Shown here one piece after another: positions 4,317 through 8,766 of a stretch of DNA of 22,845 nucleotides. A program made the position numbers and the translations under genes. The notes under the pieces are model-generated. The model made no database searches. It was not told the DNA's origin and was given only the letters and a program-made list of their open reading frames with translations. Every line of letters begins with the position of its first letter. Within the stretch, counting starts at the first letter, position 1. The stretch lies in IMG/VR virus record IMGVR_UViG_3300000116_000252, positions 1-22,845 of that record; one strand, given 5' to 3'. This DNA comes from a virus.

Positions 4317-4496
4317 ATGAAGGATTCAGAAGCATTAGCGGAAATCCGCGCACATGAAAGAGAGTGCAAGATACGTTGGGATCACATAGAGACTAGGCTG
4401 GAGCGTGGCTCTCAGCGCATGGATCGAATGGAGTTATCTATATGGGGTGTGTATCCATTCATCTTGGCATCTGTATTCTTAGCTAGATACCTCTAA
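4317..4496 (+). CDS. 59-residue protein with C-terminal membrane helix
   Basis: This short gene begins with ATG at 4317 and ends in TAA at 4494-4496, and the TAA shares its last base with the next start (TAATG). The product has a charged N-terminal half, probably a helix (EIRAHERECKIRWDHIETRLERG), followed by one hydrophobic segment at about residues 42-57 (IWGVYPFILASVFLARY). That layout, a cytoplasmic amphipathic helix then a single membrane anchor, resembles small holin-associated proteins such as XhlA, but I cannot assign a family. No good ribosome site precedes it; translation may be coupled to the preceding gene, whose stop lies twelve bases upstream. It opens the lysis module. The main support for it being real is the tight fit between neighbours. 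Confidence 0.6.
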   Translation: MKDSEALAEIRAHERECKIRWDHIETRLERGSQRMDRMELSIWGVYPFILASVFLARYL

Positions 4497-4945
4497 TGAT
4501 CGGGGAAGTTGTTGCCGTCTTGTCTGCGTTAAAGGCTTTGAATGATGGCATAGCTACGGTCAAAGAAGGTAAGGGTAACTTAGATACTATACTAGGTAGC
4601 TGGGCCGAGGCAGACGAAAAATACAATGATGTAGAGAAAGCCAAAGCCGGTGCGATGAGCTATAAAGACGCGCTGAAAATGGAGTCAGCAAAAAGACAGT
4701 TAGCTAACTTTGATCAACAGCTGAAAGATATATGTATGATGCAAGGGCAGTATGACTTGTATAAAAGCATCAAAGCTAGAATGGAAGAGAGCCGCTACGC
4801 ACATGAGAAAGAACTTCGGATCTTAAAAAAACGGAGGGCTGAGTTTAAAAAGACTATGAAGCTGATAGGAACGGCAGTGTTTGCCTGGGTCTTCTTTATG
4901 ATCTTTCTTTTCGCTGCAATATGGATGTATCGGCAGGGTGACTAA
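4496..4945 (+). CDS. 149-residue helical protein with C-terminal membrane anchor
   Basis: The product has an N-terminal helix (MIGEVVAVLSALKALNDGIATVKEG would fit one), a long charged and probably coiled-coil region from about 40 to 120, and a single strongly hydrophobic segment at about 122-144. The tail after it is short (YRQGD). I read it as a tail-anchored inner-membrane protein with most of its mass in the cytoplasm. It overlaps both neighbours by one base (TAATG), so it is co-translated with the 59- and 71-residue proteins. The position within the lysis cluster suggests a holin, antiholin or holin-regulating role. The topology does not match an i-spanin, which carries its membrane helix at the N-terminus. 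The family is unrecognised. Confidence 0.65.
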   Translation: MIGEVVAVLSALKALNDGIATVKEGKGNLDTILGSWAEADEKYNDVEKAKAGAMSYKDALKMESAKRQLANFDQQLKDICMMQGQYDLYKSIKARMEESRYAHEKELRILKKRRAEFKKTMKLIGTAVFAWVFFMIFLFAAIWMYRQGD

Positions 4946-5160
4946 TGTTGATGGCATTTTTACTTGTTGTCATTGTAGACGGCGCTGTAGTAAGTACAGA
5001 AGATATGCTTTTTGAAGACATATATAGATGCAACAAATTTGCTAACGCTATAGAGCGAGGAGAGTCAGGTCCAGAAAAAAGACCCTATATTTGGCAAGAG
5101 AACATATCGGCCTACTGCATACCTGAAATGGTTAGCAAAGAGACTTTCTTATTTAAGTAA
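4945..5160 (+). CDS. 71-residue protein with N-terminal hydrophobic segment
   Basis: The product opens with MLMAFLLVVIVDGAVVS, a short hydrophobic stretch that could be a signal sequence or membrane anchor. The remaining ~54 residues are polar and contain two cysteines (Cys29 and Cys58) that could pair if the protein is exported. The ATG overlaps the stop of the preceding gene (TAATG); a second Met at residue 3 is an alternative start. There is no lipobox. It is followed by a ~90 bp non-coding gap, the longest in the plus-strand part of the window. Function unknown; the lysis context makes an envelope role reasonable but unproven. Confidence 0.5.
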   Translation: MLMAFLLVVIVDGAVVSTEDMLFEDIYRCNKFANAIERGESGPEKRPYIWQENISAYCIPEMVSKETFLFK

Positions 5161-5211
5161 TATGTGTTGAAATTTTAAATGACGTAGGCTAATCCAAGCC
5201 GACCCCGCCTC

Positions 5212-5237
5212 GCGGCCAGGTGCGTCAAAGGCCGCAC
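5212..5237 (+). promoter_or_regulatory. Two mutually exclusive GC-rich hairpins upstream of the lipoprotein gene
   Basis: Within the 5161-5251 gap, GCGGCC (5212-5217) can pair with GGCCGC (5230-5235), and GTGCG (5220-5224) can pair with CGCAC (5233-5237). The two stems share bases 5233-5235, so only one can form at a time. Neither is followed by a T-run, so this is not a typical terminator. AAGGAG at 5241-5246 lies just after, suited to the ATG at 5252. A leader or processing structure for the lipoprotein-lipase transcript is possible. I found no convincing promoter in the gap. Confidence 0.3.
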
Positions 5238-5251
5238 TACAAGGAGTTTGC

Positions 5252-5446
5252 ATGAAACACTTATTTTTAATTGGAATTTTTGCTTTGTCTGGATGCTCCT
5301 CTATTCAGACCTGTGGCACTAGAGAATATAGCTTTGAAGTTCCCAGCACAGTTCCTTTTTTAAACGGTGCTTTTAAGATAAAGCGTAGCTCAGACCATGT
5401 AGATTGCGAAAGAGATCCTGAGGAAAGAGCTATTCAGAATGACTAG
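5252..5446 (+). CDS. Small lipoprotein (lipobox LSGC), lysis module
   Basis: This 64-residue protein has a classic lipoprotein signal: positively charged MKH, a hydrophobic core LFLIGIFA, then the lipobox Leu12-Ser13-Gly14-Cys15. The mature protein would be about 50 residues, lipid-anchored at Cys15, with further cysteines at 21 and 52 in a polar, beta-leaning sequence. AAGGAG at 5241-5246 gives it the best ribosome site of the cluster. It overlaps the lipase gene downstream by eight bases, so the two are probably made together. An o-spanin (Rz1-like) role is possible because of size, lipobox and position, but it is not proline-rich and no i-spanin partner is evident. Another option is a partner of the lipase at the outer membrane. 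Confidence 0.7.
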   Translation: MKHLFLIGIFALSGCSSIQTCGTREYSFEVPSTVPFLNGAFKIKRSSDHVDCERDPEERAIQND

Positions 5447-6011
5447 CCATCAGAAACTATCCAGCATCTGCGCTGAAAGTTACCGTAAAGCTACCTTTGA
5501 AGAAGCTAATATTGAGGTGCTCGTTAAAGGAAACATCTTTGCTTTTCGAGGAACTGATGAGCCAAAGGATGCGTTAAGAGACATGCGTATCCTGCCTTTA
5601 TGGACGCGAGAACTGGGGTGGTGCCCAGCGGGATTCCTCAAAGCCAGTAGAAGGCTGGTTAATAAAGTAACCAGCGTTTGCCTAGAAAAAGACATTGACC
5701 ATAAAGATATTATCTTGACGGGCCATAGTCTTGGCGGTGCTGTAGCTCTTATCCTAGGGGCTTTGATGACTAGGGATGAGATTCCTCCTACAGAAATAGT
5801 GACTTTTGGAGCACCTAGGTGTGGCCGATTAAAGATATTAGACGATGTTTCTGTAACTCAATACAGGCATGGGAAAGACATAGTTCCTTTAGTGCCTCCT
5901 CTCATGCGGCGACATAACAACCTTATTCGGATTGGCAGCCCTAAAAGCTTAATAAAAGATCATTTTATAATTAACTATGTTAAAACAAAAAAACCAAAGA
6001 AATCATCATGA
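5439..6011 (+). CDS. Class 3 lipase-like alpha/beta hydrolase
   Basis: This 190-residue enzyme would hydrolyse an ester bond in a lipid. It matches the lipase class 3 family (fungal lipase-like, PF01764): FAFRGTD at 34-40 fits the oxyanion-hole strand, GHSLGG at 95-100 is the nucleophile elbow with Ser97, VTFGAPRCG follows at 121-129, RHGKDIVPLVPP carries the probable acid Asp147, and KDHFI carries the probable His175. The triad is therefore complete and the protein should be active. No signal peptide is visible, so it would need a holin or another route to reach the envelope. The start overlaps the lipoprotein gene by eight bases and AGGAAAG lies about ten bases upstream. The stop shares ATGA with the EF-hand membrane protein. 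Likely role, inferred: phospholipid hydrolysis during lysis; a metabolic role is the alternative. Substrate unknown. Confidence 0.8.
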   Translation: MTSHQKLSSICAESYRKATFEEANIEVLVKGNIFAFRGTDEPKDALRDMRILPLWTRELGWCPAGFLKASRRLVNKVTSVCLEKDIDHKDIILTGHSLGGAVALILGALMTRDEIPPTEIVTFGAPRCGRLKILDDVSVTQYRHGKDIVPLVPPLMRRHNNLIRIGSPKSLIKDHFIINYVKTKKPKKSS

Positions 6012-6352
6012 GCCCAAAAAAGTTAGAACCTAATTCTGAATACGCTAAATACGACACTGATGGCGATGGAATTGTCAGCGATGATGAGATAGCTTCTTCA
6101 GAAAGGCTACAACAGCTAGAAGTTATTCATGAGAAAGCAGATGCTCAGAAAAATATGTGCTGGCTGGCCCTGCTTGGAATGCTGCTTTACCCATCCTTGG
6201 TTGTGTTGAGTGACTTACTGGGATTGGATAAGTCTGCTGACGTTCTAGGGGCTATGAGTTCAATTTACTTTGTAAGTGTGGGCGGTCTTATTTCTGTTTG
6301 GTTTGGAAGCCAAGCGTACACGAACGCTAAAAACAATAACGGAGATAAATAA
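6008..6352 (+). CDS. EF-hand protein with two membrane helices, holin candidate
   Basis: This 114-residue protein has a canonical 12-residue EF-hand loop at residues 16-27 (DTDGDGIVSDDE), with Asp at 1, 3 and 5, Gly at 6, Val at 8, Ser at 9 and Glu at 12, so calcium binding is expected. A charged linker leads to two hydrophobic helices, at about 51-72 and 79-100, joined by a short turn (DKSAD). The protein ends in a polar tail. Two helices, small size and a place directly before the endolysin fit a holin, with the EF-hand most likely on the cytoplasmic side. The start shares ATGA with the lipase stop, and its TAA overlaps the next ATG. The single EF-hand might dimerise. The holin role is inferred; calcium binding is well supported by sequence. 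Confidence 0.7.
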   Translation: MSPKKLEPNSEYAKYDTDGDGIVSDDEIASSERLQQLEVIHEKADAQKNMCWLALLGMLLYPSLVVLSDLLGLDKSADVLGAMSSIYFVSVGGLISVWFGSQAYTNAKNNNGDK

Positions 6353-6414
6353 TGGAGATTGTTTTAGTTGTTGGTTTTGTTTTTGGGTATTTAATTGGGA
6401 GGTTAGCTAAGTGA
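6352..6414 (+). CDS. 20-residue single-helix membrane microprotein
   Basis: This gene runs ATG at 6352 to TGA at 6412-6414 and encodes MEIVLVVGFVFGYLIGRLAK, almost entirely one hydrophobic helix with a basic end. Gly12 and Gly16 make a GxxxG motif, often used for helix packing in membranes. The start overlaps the EF-hand gene's TAA (TAATG), with GGAG at 6341-6344 upstream. The stop overlaps the endolysin start as GTGA. Both junctions match the style of the surrounding genes, and the frame exactly fills the space, which supports a real gene despite its size. Possible roles are a holin subunit, an antiholin partner of the EF-hand protein, or simply a coupling leader for the endolysin. No family is recognised. 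Confidence 0.55.
   Translation: MEIVLVVGFVFGYLIGRLAK
6397..6402 (+). promoter_or_regulatory. Ribosome binding site for the GTG-started endolysin
   Basis: GGGAGG lies eight bases before the GTG at 6411, the best-placed Shine-Dalgarno match nearby. It supports GTG as the endolysin start and lies inside the microprotein's coding region, so ribosomes finishing the microprotein could reinitiate here. Confidence 0.65.
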
Positions 6415-6896
6415 CCGTAGACATTAAAGATCTCTATGAAGAAATTTCATCTGATGAGGGTAAAATCCTTCATGCTTACCTTTGCACTGAGTTACATGCA
6501 ACTGTTGGAATAGGTCATAAAATATTAGACACAGACCCAGAAAAAGAACTAGAGATATACGGAGTTAATTGGGAAGAGGTTCCTGATGATCAGCGCATTA
6601 CAGAAGACCGTTGTTACATTTTATTTCAAGAAGACGTTCAGATAGCCATAGGTGGCTGCATGAATATCTACAATAACTGGGATGAGTTGCCGCAAGAAAT
6701 GCAACATGTCTTAGTTAACATGGCCTTTCAAATGGGGCAGCGAGGGCTATCAAACTTTAAGAACATGAAGGCAGCTATTGAAGAGCAAGACTTTGCTAAG
6801 GCTGCAATAGAAATGATGGACAGTCGGTGGGCAAGTCAAACGCCAGAACGAGCCGAAAGATTAAAATTAAGAGTCGAAAGACTCGCAGGTAGATAA
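6411..6896 (+). CDS. Endolysin, T4-type lysozyme (glycoside hydrolase family 24)
   Basis: This 161-residue enzyme should cleave the glycan strands of peptidoglycan at the end of infection. The N-terminal catalytic pattern aligns with T4 lysozyme: Glu16 in SSDEG, Cys25 where T4 has Asp20, and Thr31 just before VGIGHK. The spacing is E-8-C-5-T, an accepted variant of the family's E-8-(D/C)-5-T triad. The later part matches as well, with LVNMAFQMG and SRWASQTPERAERL. Length is that of T4 lysozyme (164). There is no signal or signal-anchor sequence, so release depends on a holin, which fits the upstream membrane proteins. The GTG start overlaps the microprotein stop (GTGA). Function is confident; the Cys variant is the only oddity. 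Confidence 0.9.
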   Translation: MTVDIKDLYEEISSDEGKILHAYLCTELHATVGIGHKILDTDPEKELEIYGVNWEEVPDDQRITEDRCYILFQEDVQIAIGGCMNIYNNWDELPQEMQHVLVNMAFQMGQRGLSNFKNMKAAIEEQDFAKAAIEMMDSRWASQTPERAERLKLRVERLAGR

Positions 6897-6897
6897 C

Positions 6898-8766
6898 ATG
6901 CCATTAGAGCCTTTACTATTTAAGCCAGGGATAAACAAAGAAAGCACTAGCTATACTGCTGAAGGCGGATGGTTTGACGGCAACCTAGTCAGGTTTAAAA
7001 AAGGGTACGCTGAAAAAATAGGCGGATGGCAAAAGTATCTTTTAGTTTCTTATGAGGGAACCGGAAGAAAGCTGCACAACTGGGTTAACTTAGGCGGATC
7101 AAAACTCTTAGGGCTTGGCACTAGGTTTAAGCTATACATACAGGAAGGAGCAAACTTTAACGATATTACGCCATTAAGATCTACAACAGCAGCAGGCGAT
7201 GTAACCTTTGCCGCGAGTAACGGATCTAGCACCATTACAGTAACTGATGCTTCTCACGGTGCTGCTCAAAATGACTTTGTTACGTTTTCAGGCGCAGTTA
7301 GTTTGGGCGGTGTTATTACTGCTGCCGTTCTTAACCATGAGTACCAAGTAGCTTCTATTGTTAACGGCAACTCTTACACTTTTCTAGCAACTGATGTTAA
7401 TGGAAACTCTGTAACTGCTAACGGTAGCGACACTGGTAATGGCGGCGGATCAACTGTAGGTAAATATCAAATTGGCGTTGGCCTTGATGTCTTTGTTGGC
7501 AGCACAGGTTGGGGTGCAGACACTTGGGGTAACTCAACATGGGGATCAACCTCATCGTTAGCTGCAAACAATCAGCTTAGATTGTGGTCAATGGATAACT
7601 TTGGAGAAGACTTAATTGCAAACCCAAGAGCAGGCAGTGTTTATTACTGGACTAACTCTGGCGGGGTGGCAACAAGAGGAGTTGCTTTAAGCGACCTTGC
7701 CGGGTCTAACCTTGCTCCTACCAGAGGTCTTCAGGTTATTGTCTCAGACGTAGACAGGCATGCTCTTGTCCTTGGCGCAGATCCAATATCAAACTCAACG
7801 GGATTAAGATCGGGATCTATAGACCCGCTGCTTATTGCTTTCTCTAACCAAGAGGATATAACTGATTGGGAGCCTAGGTCTGATAACACGGCAGGATCTC
7901 TCAGGTGCTCTGCTGGCTCTGAAATAATTGGAGGGATAAGAGCTAGGCAGGAAACTTTAATATGGACTGACGTAGCCCTCTACAGCTTGCAGTTTATTGG
8001 AACCCCTCTTACCTTTGGATTAAATTTAATTAACGAAGGCGTTACTTTGATTGGTCCTAACTGCGCTGTTAACACCCCGGCAGGCGTGTTTTGGATGGAC
8101 AGAAAGGGCTTCTACAAATACTCAGGTACTGTGCAAAGCATTAAGTGTTCTGTTCAGTCTTATGTTTACAGTGACTTTAATCAGTCACAGTCATATCAAT
8201 TTTTTGGATTTGTTAATAAAGAATTTAATGAAGTCGGATGGTTTTATTGCTCTTCTTCTACCACGGTAATTGATCGATACGTCACTTATAACTATGTAGA
8301 AGACCATTGGTCAATAGGGCAAATGTCCAGAACTGCTTGGATAGATGAGGGCGTATCGGTCAATCCAATCGCTGCAGGGAAGAGCTCTTCCACCCCATAC
8401 CTGTATAGCCATGAGGTGGGGAATGACGATGACGGGTCTGCTATGGCCTCTGTGTACATTCAGTCAGGAGACTTTGACATAGGTAACGGGCAAGACTTTC
8501 AGTTTATTAAAAGAATGATTCCAGACATTAATTTTAATGGTACTGGTGGTAGCGGCCAAGCAGTGGACGCTGTGTTAAAGGTAAGGAACTATCCTGGAGA
8601 TTCTCTAGCAACAGAGCAGACCACCTCGTTTACAGGCGCTACTACCAAGATAGACATGAGGGCTAGAGGCAGGCAAGCTGCGCTAAGGTTTCAGTCTAGT
8701 GCTGCTGGGGTAGGATTCAGGCTTGGTAATACAAGGCTAGACCTACAGCCCAACGGCAAAAGATAA
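6898..8766 (+). CDS. DNA stabilisation / head-tail connector protein, P22 gp10-like
   Basis: This 622-residue virion protein starts MPLEPLLFKPGINKESTSYT, with WFDGNLVRFKKGYAEKIGGW soon after, an opening typical of a family that includes P22 gp10, the packaged-DNA stabilisation protein. That family plugs or extends the portal channel. The body is beta-rich with many Trp-Gly turns (STGWGADTWGNSTWG at about 202-216). Core strands such as LLIAFSNQEDITDWEP and GVFWMDRKGFYKYSG suit a propeller-like domain. Residues about 101-187 look like an inserted small beta domain (ITVTDASHGAAQNDFVTFSG), of a type sometimes annotated as FCCH-like in phage proteins. The ATG lies one base after the endolysin stop. 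The structural role is fairly certain; gp10 equivalence is inferred from recall of the family. Confidence 0.7.
   Translation: MPLEPLLFKPGINKESTSYTAEGGWFDGNLVRFKKGYAEKIGGWQKYLLVSYEGTGRKLHNWVNLGGSKLLGLGTRFKLYIQEGANFNDITPLRSTTAAGDVTFAASNGSSTITVTDASHGAAQNDFVTFSGAVSLGGVITAAVLNHEYQVASIVNGNSYTFLATDVNGNSVTANGSDTGNGGGSTVGKYQIGVGLDVFVGSTGWGADTWGNSTWGSTSSLAANNQLRLWSMDNFGEDLIANPRAGSVYYWTNSGGVATRGVALSDLAGSNLAPTRGLQVIVSDVDRHALVLGADPISNSTGLRSGSIDPLLIAFSNQEDITDWEPRSDNTAGSLRCSAGSEIIGGIRARQETLIWTDVALYSLQFIGTPLTFGLNLINEGVTLIGPNCAVNTPAGVFWMDRKGFYKYSGTVQSIKCSVQSYVYSDFNQSQSYQFFGFVNKEFNEVGWFYCSSSTTVIDRYVTYNYVEDHWSIGQMSRTAWIDEGVSVNPIAAGKSSSTPYLYSHEVGNDDDGSAMASVYIQSGDFDIGNGQDFQFIKRMIPDINFNGTGGSGQAVDAVLKVRNYPGDSLATEQTTSFTGATTKIDMRARGRQAALRFQSSAAGVGFRLGNTRLDLQPNGKR

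What the first reader, a model, noticed from the sequence alone, without database searches (positions are those of the whole stretch)
4317..6896. Compact envelope-breaking module combining lipase, EF-hand membrane protein, lipoprotein, microprotein and lysozyme
Eight genes, most joined by TAATG, ATGA or GTGA overlaps, appear to target every envelope layer: at least four proteins with membrane or export segments, one lipid-anchored protein, a lipase with a complete triad and a peptidoglycan hydrolase. No classical i-spanin is visible. The lipase and lipoprotein might do the outer-membrane step that spanins usually perform. Gene order and motifs are seen directly; the joint lysis role is inference.
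Basis: partly seen in the sequence, partly recalled or inferred. Interest (0 to 1): 0.62.

Follow-up and report, generated by a model that had tools for sequence, protein, structure and literature searches.

The report
Marine phage lysis genes with lipase
This is the gene set an uncultured marine phage most likely uses to burst its host; where related phages carry the usual protein pair that breaks the bacterial outer membrane (spanins), this one carries a tiny lipid-anchored protein followed by a fat-splitting enzyme, suggesting a different and still untested way of breaking that membrane.

Summary
The eight genes and six of their seven junctions overlap as reported. The region is almost certainly the phage's lysis cassette: order A-B-C-LP-LIP-EF-(MIC)-LYS recurs in IMG/VR, with a lysozyme downstream of the lipase in 75 of 80 close lipase loci, also in genomes with unrelated flanks. 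The slot upstream of EF is a lysis-gene hotspot. It holds lipoprotein+lipase (window type), a two-component spanin pair (PHROGs 739/812) with the same lipase, a spanin pair alone, or a 3-TM holin. LP and spanins were never found together (45 vs 26 non-identical slots). In a second gene order LP alone stands where relatives have the spanin pair. A six-frame lipobox scan of a 57.9-kb LP-type relative finds only LP. So the small lipoprotein, not the lipase, is the better candidate spanin replacement; the lipase works beside either. EF is a probable two-TM holin-like protein. The 'outer-membrane step by lipase plus lipoprotein' remains plausible but unproven; holin alleles in the same slot weaken the swap argument. 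I found no description of this arrangement in the papers searched. New variant of a known kind, testable by complementing lambda Rz/Rz1 defects.

The parts
4317..4496 (+). gene A, 59 aa, coiled-coil N-terminus + C-terminal TM, XhlA-like
   Evidence: TM; a longer version in the LIP-EF-A' loci (L111) hits phrog_937 hemolysin (E 0.0015); conserved in order
4496..4945 (+). gene B, 149 aa, cytosolic helical domain + C-terminal TM, function unknown
   Evidence: dN/dS ~0.04; lost together with C in some relatives
4945..5160 (+). gene C, 71 aa, N-terminal hydrophobic/export segment, two conserved Cys
   Evidence: precedes LP, the spanin pair or the holin in the cassette types
5161..5251 (+). GC-rich intergenic stretch, found only in window, L004 and L005
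   Evidence: no significant fold
5252..5446 (+). LP, 64-aa lipoprotein; mature part ~50 aa with conserved C21 and H49-x-D51-C52; candidate spanin replacement
   Evidence: lipobox; 40-sequence alignment; alternates with the spanin pair
5439..6011 (+). LIP, 190-aa class-3 lipase, catalytic Ser97-Asp147-His175, no signal peptide seen
6008..6352 (+). EF, 114 aa, one canonical EF-hand loop then two TM helices; probable holin or holin-like protein
   Evidence: relatives next to endolysin and u-spanin in Roseobacter phages CRP-345 and CRP-9
6352..6414 (+). MIC, 20-aa single-TM microprotein, optional
6411..6896 (+). LYS, 161-aa T4-type lysozyme (endolysin), catalytic E16-C25-T31
6898..8766 (+). context: virion stabilization protein (phrog_3287) that follows the lysis genes here and in phages DSL-LC04 and CRP-901

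Best explanation
The stretch is the lysis cassette of a marine tailed phage. Most likely order of events: EF (with A, B and possibly MIC as modulators) permeabilises the inner membrane; the leaderless lysozyme LYS and lipase LIP reach the periplasm; LYS cuts peptidoglycan; LP, exported early and lipidated, takes the place of the missing spanin at the outer membrane, and LIP hydrolyses membrane lipids to complete rupture. Shown: gene content, conserved order, catalytic residues, lipobox, alternation of LP with a spanin pair, absence of another lipoprotein in LP-type contigs. Inferred: holin role of EF, outer-membrane role of LP, substrate and timing of LIP.
For: (1) LYS downstream of LIP in 75/80 close homologue loci, EF in 79/80. 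(2) The unit LP-LIP-EF-LYS occurs beside unrelated genes: tail/stabilization genes (window), helicase and DNA polymerase (L061, L062), HNH/terminase-like genes (L265, L284). (3) The slot between C and EF holds LP-LIP, a spanin pair with or without LIP, or a 3-TM holin (PF11351 5e-20, phrog_3427 holin). (4) LP and spanin pair never together: 45 LP-only, 26 spanin-only, 0 both. (5) Second context LYS-B-C-[spanin pair]-basic gene (L234) versus LYS-B-C-[LP]-same basic gene (L273): LP replaces the pair without the lipase beside it. (6) LP is the only lipoprotein outside longer ORFs in 57.9-kb G001, 36.7-kb G002 and the window; the same scan recovers the o-spanin in G034, G027 and L074. (7) Precedent: LysB, a lipolytic lysis enzyme, acts 'similarly to spanins' in mycobacteriophage Ms6 (PMC5707550). 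(8) Distant lipases also lie in other lysis cassettes: Burkholderia phage BgManors32, next to a lipoprotein and a GH19 endolysin, and a Xanthobacteraceae contig with a GH25 enzyme.
Against: A holin gene also alternates with the spanin pair in this slot, with near-identical EF genes, so sharing a slot does not prove equal function; two such holin-type contigs (G032, G033) show no LP, lipase or spanin, so some relatives may manage without. LP (~50 aa mature, no C-terminal TM) cannot bridge the periplasm like a u-spanin; its model is low-confidence (pLDDT 64). LIP co-occurs with full spanin pairs, so it is not a spanin substitute by itself. LIP-EF can lie 16 kb from the endolysin (G011, G024). 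All contigs may be incomplete. Relatedness of the loci inflates the Fisher p (3e-9). No experiment.
Confidence: 0.5

Rival explanations
1. Ordinary lysis cassette with an accessory lipase: EF and LYS do the work, the host outer membrane needs no spanin (as proposed for marine cyanobacteria), LP is an unrelated lipoprotein such as a superinfection-exclusion (Cor-like) factor, and LIP is a bystander or lipid-recycling enzyme.
For: Holin-type contigs of the same group show neither LP, LIP nor spanins; Kongari et al. report 13% spanin-less phages and a possible fragile-membrane reason (PMC6139136); LP has a weak hit to phrog_1119 Cor (E 0.01, mostly the signal region).
Against: LP was found only in lysis-type contexts and alternates with spanins in two different gene orders; LIP and LP are under purifying selection and kept beside EF-LYS across unrelated flanks.
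Confidence: 0.25
2. The lipase alone is the membrane breaker, a LysB-like phospholipase, and LP is its membrane-targeting or protective partner.
For: LP and LIP genes overlap; BgManors32 has a different lipoprotein gene overlapping its lipase gene in a lysis cassette; PDB sequence hits include phospholipase A1.
Against: LIP stands beside full spanin pairs without LP, and LP stands without adjacent LIP in L256, L264, L273, so they are not an obligate adjacent pair.
Confidence: 0.15
3. LIP and EF are late or virion-associated functions (entry or ejection) that merely neighbour the lysis genes.
For: LIP-EF-A' lies among tail genes far from LYS in G011 and G024; EF relatives sit next to the tape-measure gene in HTVC008M and at the same place in Melnitz phages.
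Against: LYS adjacent in 75/80 loci; EF relatives next to endolysin and u-spanin in CRP-345 and CRP-9.
Confidence: 0.1

Closest known systems
Two-component spanins (Rz/Rz1; phrog_739, phrog_812)
   Same: small lipoprotein encoded in the lysis cassette; occupies the same slot in sister phages
   Different: no i-spanin partner; LP shares little more than the lipobox with the o-spanins of the sister phages
Unimolecular spanins (T1 gp11; u-spanin-like proteins of CRP-345 and CRP-9)
   Same: single lipoprotein; the EF relative sits next to one in CRP-345
   Different: LP has no C-terminal TM and is too short to span the periplasm
LysB of mycobacteriophages (Ms6)
   Same: lipolytic serine enzyme in the lysis cassette, third step of lysis
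   Different: different lipase family and host envelope; no spanin or LP partner
phrog_21992 esterase/lipase (Burkholderia phage BgManors32 gp42)
   Same: class-3 lipase in a lysis cassette, preceded by an overlapping lipoprotein gene
   Different: ~29% identity, different lipoprotein (162 aa), GH19 endolysin, no EF protein seen next to it
Spanin-less phages with a lone lipoprotein (Kongari et al. 2018, PMC6139136)
   Same: lipoprotein without i-spanin
   Different: here the lone lipoprotein is conserved, alternates with a spanin pair, and is linked to a lipase

Membership tests
Class-3 lipase (PF01764) | profile score above cut-off | tested here: met
   63.9 bits vs 22
Class-3 lipase (PF01764) | Ser-Asp-His triad with GHSLG | tested here: met
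   S97, D147, H175 invariant
T4-type phage lysozyme (PF00959) | profile score and E-8-[DC]-5-T | tested here: met
   36 bits vs 22.3; E16-C25-T31
Two-component spanin | lipoprotein plus adjacent N-terminal-TM periplasmic i-spanin | tested here: not met
   lipoprotein present, no i-spanin in window or LP-type contigs; A and B have C-terminal TMs; C also precedes true spanins
Unimolecular spanin | lipobox and C-terminal TM in one protein | tested here: not met
   LP has a lipobox, no C-terminal TM
Spanin function (works like) | outer-membrane disruption at lysis | not testable with these tools
   needs a complementation assay
Holin | TM protein of the lysis cassette that makes lethal inner-membrane lesions | tested here: inconclusive
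   EF: 2-TM helical hairpin, cassette position; no holin profile hit; co-occurs with a 3-TM holin in some relatives
EF-hand protein (PF00036) | profile score above cut-off | tested here: not met
   14.1 bits vs 25.4; a single canonical loop is conserved in the alignment
LysB | mycolyl-arabinogalactan esterase family | tested here: not met
   Lipase_3 and phrog_21992 are the families matched
Disruptin (cationic peptide) | small cationic amphipathic outer-membrane-disrupting peptide | not tested
   LP is not strongly cationic by eye; MIC is a single TM segment

The most novel reading that the evidence does not exclude
LP and LIP form an alternative third step of Gram-negative lysis: a short lipoprotein without an i-spanin plus a periplasm-released lipase destroy the outer membrane enzymatically instead of by membrane fusion, and this allele has exchanged with the Rz/Rz1 pair in marine phages, possibly timed by a Ca2+-binding holin (EF).
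Probability: 0.3. Interest if true: 0.8.

Novelty: new variant of a known kind. Interest (0 to 1): 0.55.

Why it matters
About 13% of the phage genomes in one survey lack recognisable spanins (PMC6139136) and how such phages break the outer membrane is open. Here closely related phages carry, at one locus, either a spanin pair, a lone lipoprotein with a lipase, or lipase plus pair. That gives defined candidates and built-in controls for a standard complementation assay, in a group of phages common in marine metagenomes.

Tried and rejected
Lipase as sole spanin substitute: rejected, it co-occurs with spanin pairs. Gene C, A or B as i-spanin partner of LP: unlikely, C is present with true spanins too, A and B have C-terminal TMs. 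LP as homologue of the sister o-spanin: the alignment shares little beyond the lipobox. First lipobox scans missed a CSGC lipobox in the positive control G034; repeated with a looser pattern and controls. PF11351 search over LP-type contigs rang nowhere, controls included, so it is uninformative. Intergenic 5161-5251 as a structured RNA: fold not better than shuffles, no Rfam hit. Structure models of LP and EF were low-confidence (pLDDT 64 and 66), so no fold search was made. LP against cultured phages: no match. Literature searches for lipase with spanin, EF-hand with holin, and phospholipase with spanin found no description of this arrangement; most subscription papers are not in the library. 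Host not identified: the genome-contig scan returned only distant lipases.
Full report
Observation. All eight genes exist as described. Six of seven junctions overlap; between C and LP there is a 91-nt gap. LIP is a class-3 lipase with an invariant Ser97-Asp147-His175 triad, LYS a T4-type lysozyme with E16-C25-T31, LP a 64-aa lipoprotein, EF a 114-aa protein with one EF-hand loop and two TM helices. The seven longer genes are under purifying selection. MIC (20 aa) is an optional member.

Neighbourhoods. The lipase was used to fetch 80 IMG/VR loci. The order A-B-C-LP-LIP-EF-(MIC)-LYS is kept in most; B and C are lost together in some; LYS follows in 75 of 80 and EF is present in 79. The unit is found beside quite different genes: tail and stabilization genes (window), helicase and DNA polymerase (L061, L062), HNH/terminase-like genes (L265, L284). 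In the cultured phages DSL-LC04 and CRP-901 the same place, just upstream of the stabilization protein, holds endolysin and holin-like genes. The module is therefore a lysis cassette.

The slot upstream of EF. In L072-L076, L079 and L080 LP is absent and an overlapping pair precedes the lipase: a 169-aa protein with a TM near its N-terminus and a coiled coil, and a 134-aa lipoprotein; PHROGs calls both Rz-like spanin (phrog_739, 5.7e-8; phrog_812, 5.5e-11 and 1.6e-14). Fetching by EF and by the i-spanin and scoring with profiles shows further alleles: spanin pair without lipase (for example L128, L130, L161-L169), and a 3-TM holin (PF11351, 5.2e-20; phrog_3427) in loci such as L106, L107 and L116. 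Anchored on gene C and with identical slots removed there are 45 LP slots (41 with the lipase), 26 spanin slots (5 with the lipase), 21 holin slots, and none with LP and spanins together (Fisher p 3e-9, but the loci are not phylogenetically independent; after collapsing similar slots 29 and 15, still 0 together).

A second context. In another gene order, LYS-B-C is followed by the spanin pair and a small basic gene (L234) or by LP and the same basic gene (L273), without a lipase beside it; L153-L160 and L256, L264, L274 show the same two arrangements of LYS-B-C with pair or LP. The contig of L274 (G024) carries LIP-EF about 16 kb away. This is the strongest sign that LP, not LIP, stands in for the spanin pair.

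Spanins elsewhere. No i-spanin or o-spanin of this family is present in 17 LP-type contigs beside the window, while G011, G012 and G013 hit. A six-frame lipobox scan, loosened until it recovered the o-spanins of G034, G027 and L074, leaves LP as the only lipoprotein outside longer ORFs in the 57.9-kb G001, the 36.7-kb G002 and the window. Contigs may be incomplete, and spanins with other anchors are not excluded.

Caveats that lower confidence. The same slot also exchanges a holin for the spanin pair among phages with nearly identical EF genes, so position alone does not show equal function. Two holin-type contigs of 46.9 and 53.8 kb show no LP, lipase or spanin. LIP co-occurs with spanins and can lie far from the endolysin (G011: lipase at 17 kb, spanins at 33 kb). 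The lipase tree needs three changes of the LP/spanin/none label, with weak support for more than one switch.

EF. Relatives in cultured phages keep the EF-hand loop and two TMs and lie next to an endolysin and a u-spanin in Roseobacter phages CRP-345 and CRP-9, near a peptidase and an i-spanin-like gene in Limnohabitans phage DC31, but next to the tape-measure gene in HTVC008M and at the same place in Melnitz phages. A holin role is likely, not shown. A single Ca2+-binding loop on a membrane protein of the lysis cassette is a curious, untested feature.

Other lipase cassettes. Burkholderia phage BgManors32 has, around a GH19 endolysin, an XhlA-like gene and a lipoprotein gene overlapping its lipase gene. 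A Xanthobacteraceae contig has a GH25 enzyme, a small TM protein, lipase and a coiled-coil protein. Lipases in the cyanophage CrV and in AG-345-O18 are not next to recognised endolysins.

Known work. Two-component and unimolecular spanins and the open question of spanin-less phages are described in PMC6139136; it reports lone lipoproteins without a linked i-spanin in 31 genomes and does not mention lipases. LysB of phage Ms6 is the precedent for a lipolytic lysis enzyme in the third step (PMC5707550). A 2025 survey of viral lytic proteins does not mention lipases (PMC12596118). I found no description of the LP/LIP arrangement in the library searched.

Verdict. Lysis cassette: about 0.9. EF as holin or holin-like: about 0.65. 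LP as functional replacement of the spanin pair: about 0.5. LIP as lipid-attacking lysis enzyme: about 0.6. The joint outer-membrane mechanism stays inference.

Noticed in passing
window 5161-5251: GC-rich 91-nt insert between C and LP, shared only with L004 and L005; not structured as RNA.
   Followed up: partly
L069 2467-4839; L070: LP lies next to EF, and a different 86-aa lipoprotein gene precedes the lipase: two lipoproteins in one cassette.
   Followed up: partly
L061 3057-3221, L062 1452-1616, L052 6589-6738: Small CxxC...CxxC (zinc-ribbon-like) gene inserted around EF and LYS in several relatives.
   Followed up: no
L285 2887-3468 (Roseobacter phage CRP-207 gp73): Annotated 'putative lysozyme', but the sequence looks like an N-terminal TM plus coiled coil, more i-spanin-like.
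   Followed up: no
L287 3459-3791; L288 3459-3788: EF-hand two-TM proteins next to the tape-measure gene in T4-like Pelagibacter phage HTVC008M and at the same place in Melnitz phages.
   Followed up: partly
L227 5998-7134; L111 3202-4322: LIP-EF-A' unit among tail genes, far from the endolysin; lipase and EF stay together when separated from LYS.
   Followed up: partly
L294-L299 (G032, G033): Holin-type relatives of 47-54 kb with no recognisable spanin, LP or lipase: their outer-membrane step is unknown.
   Followed up: partly
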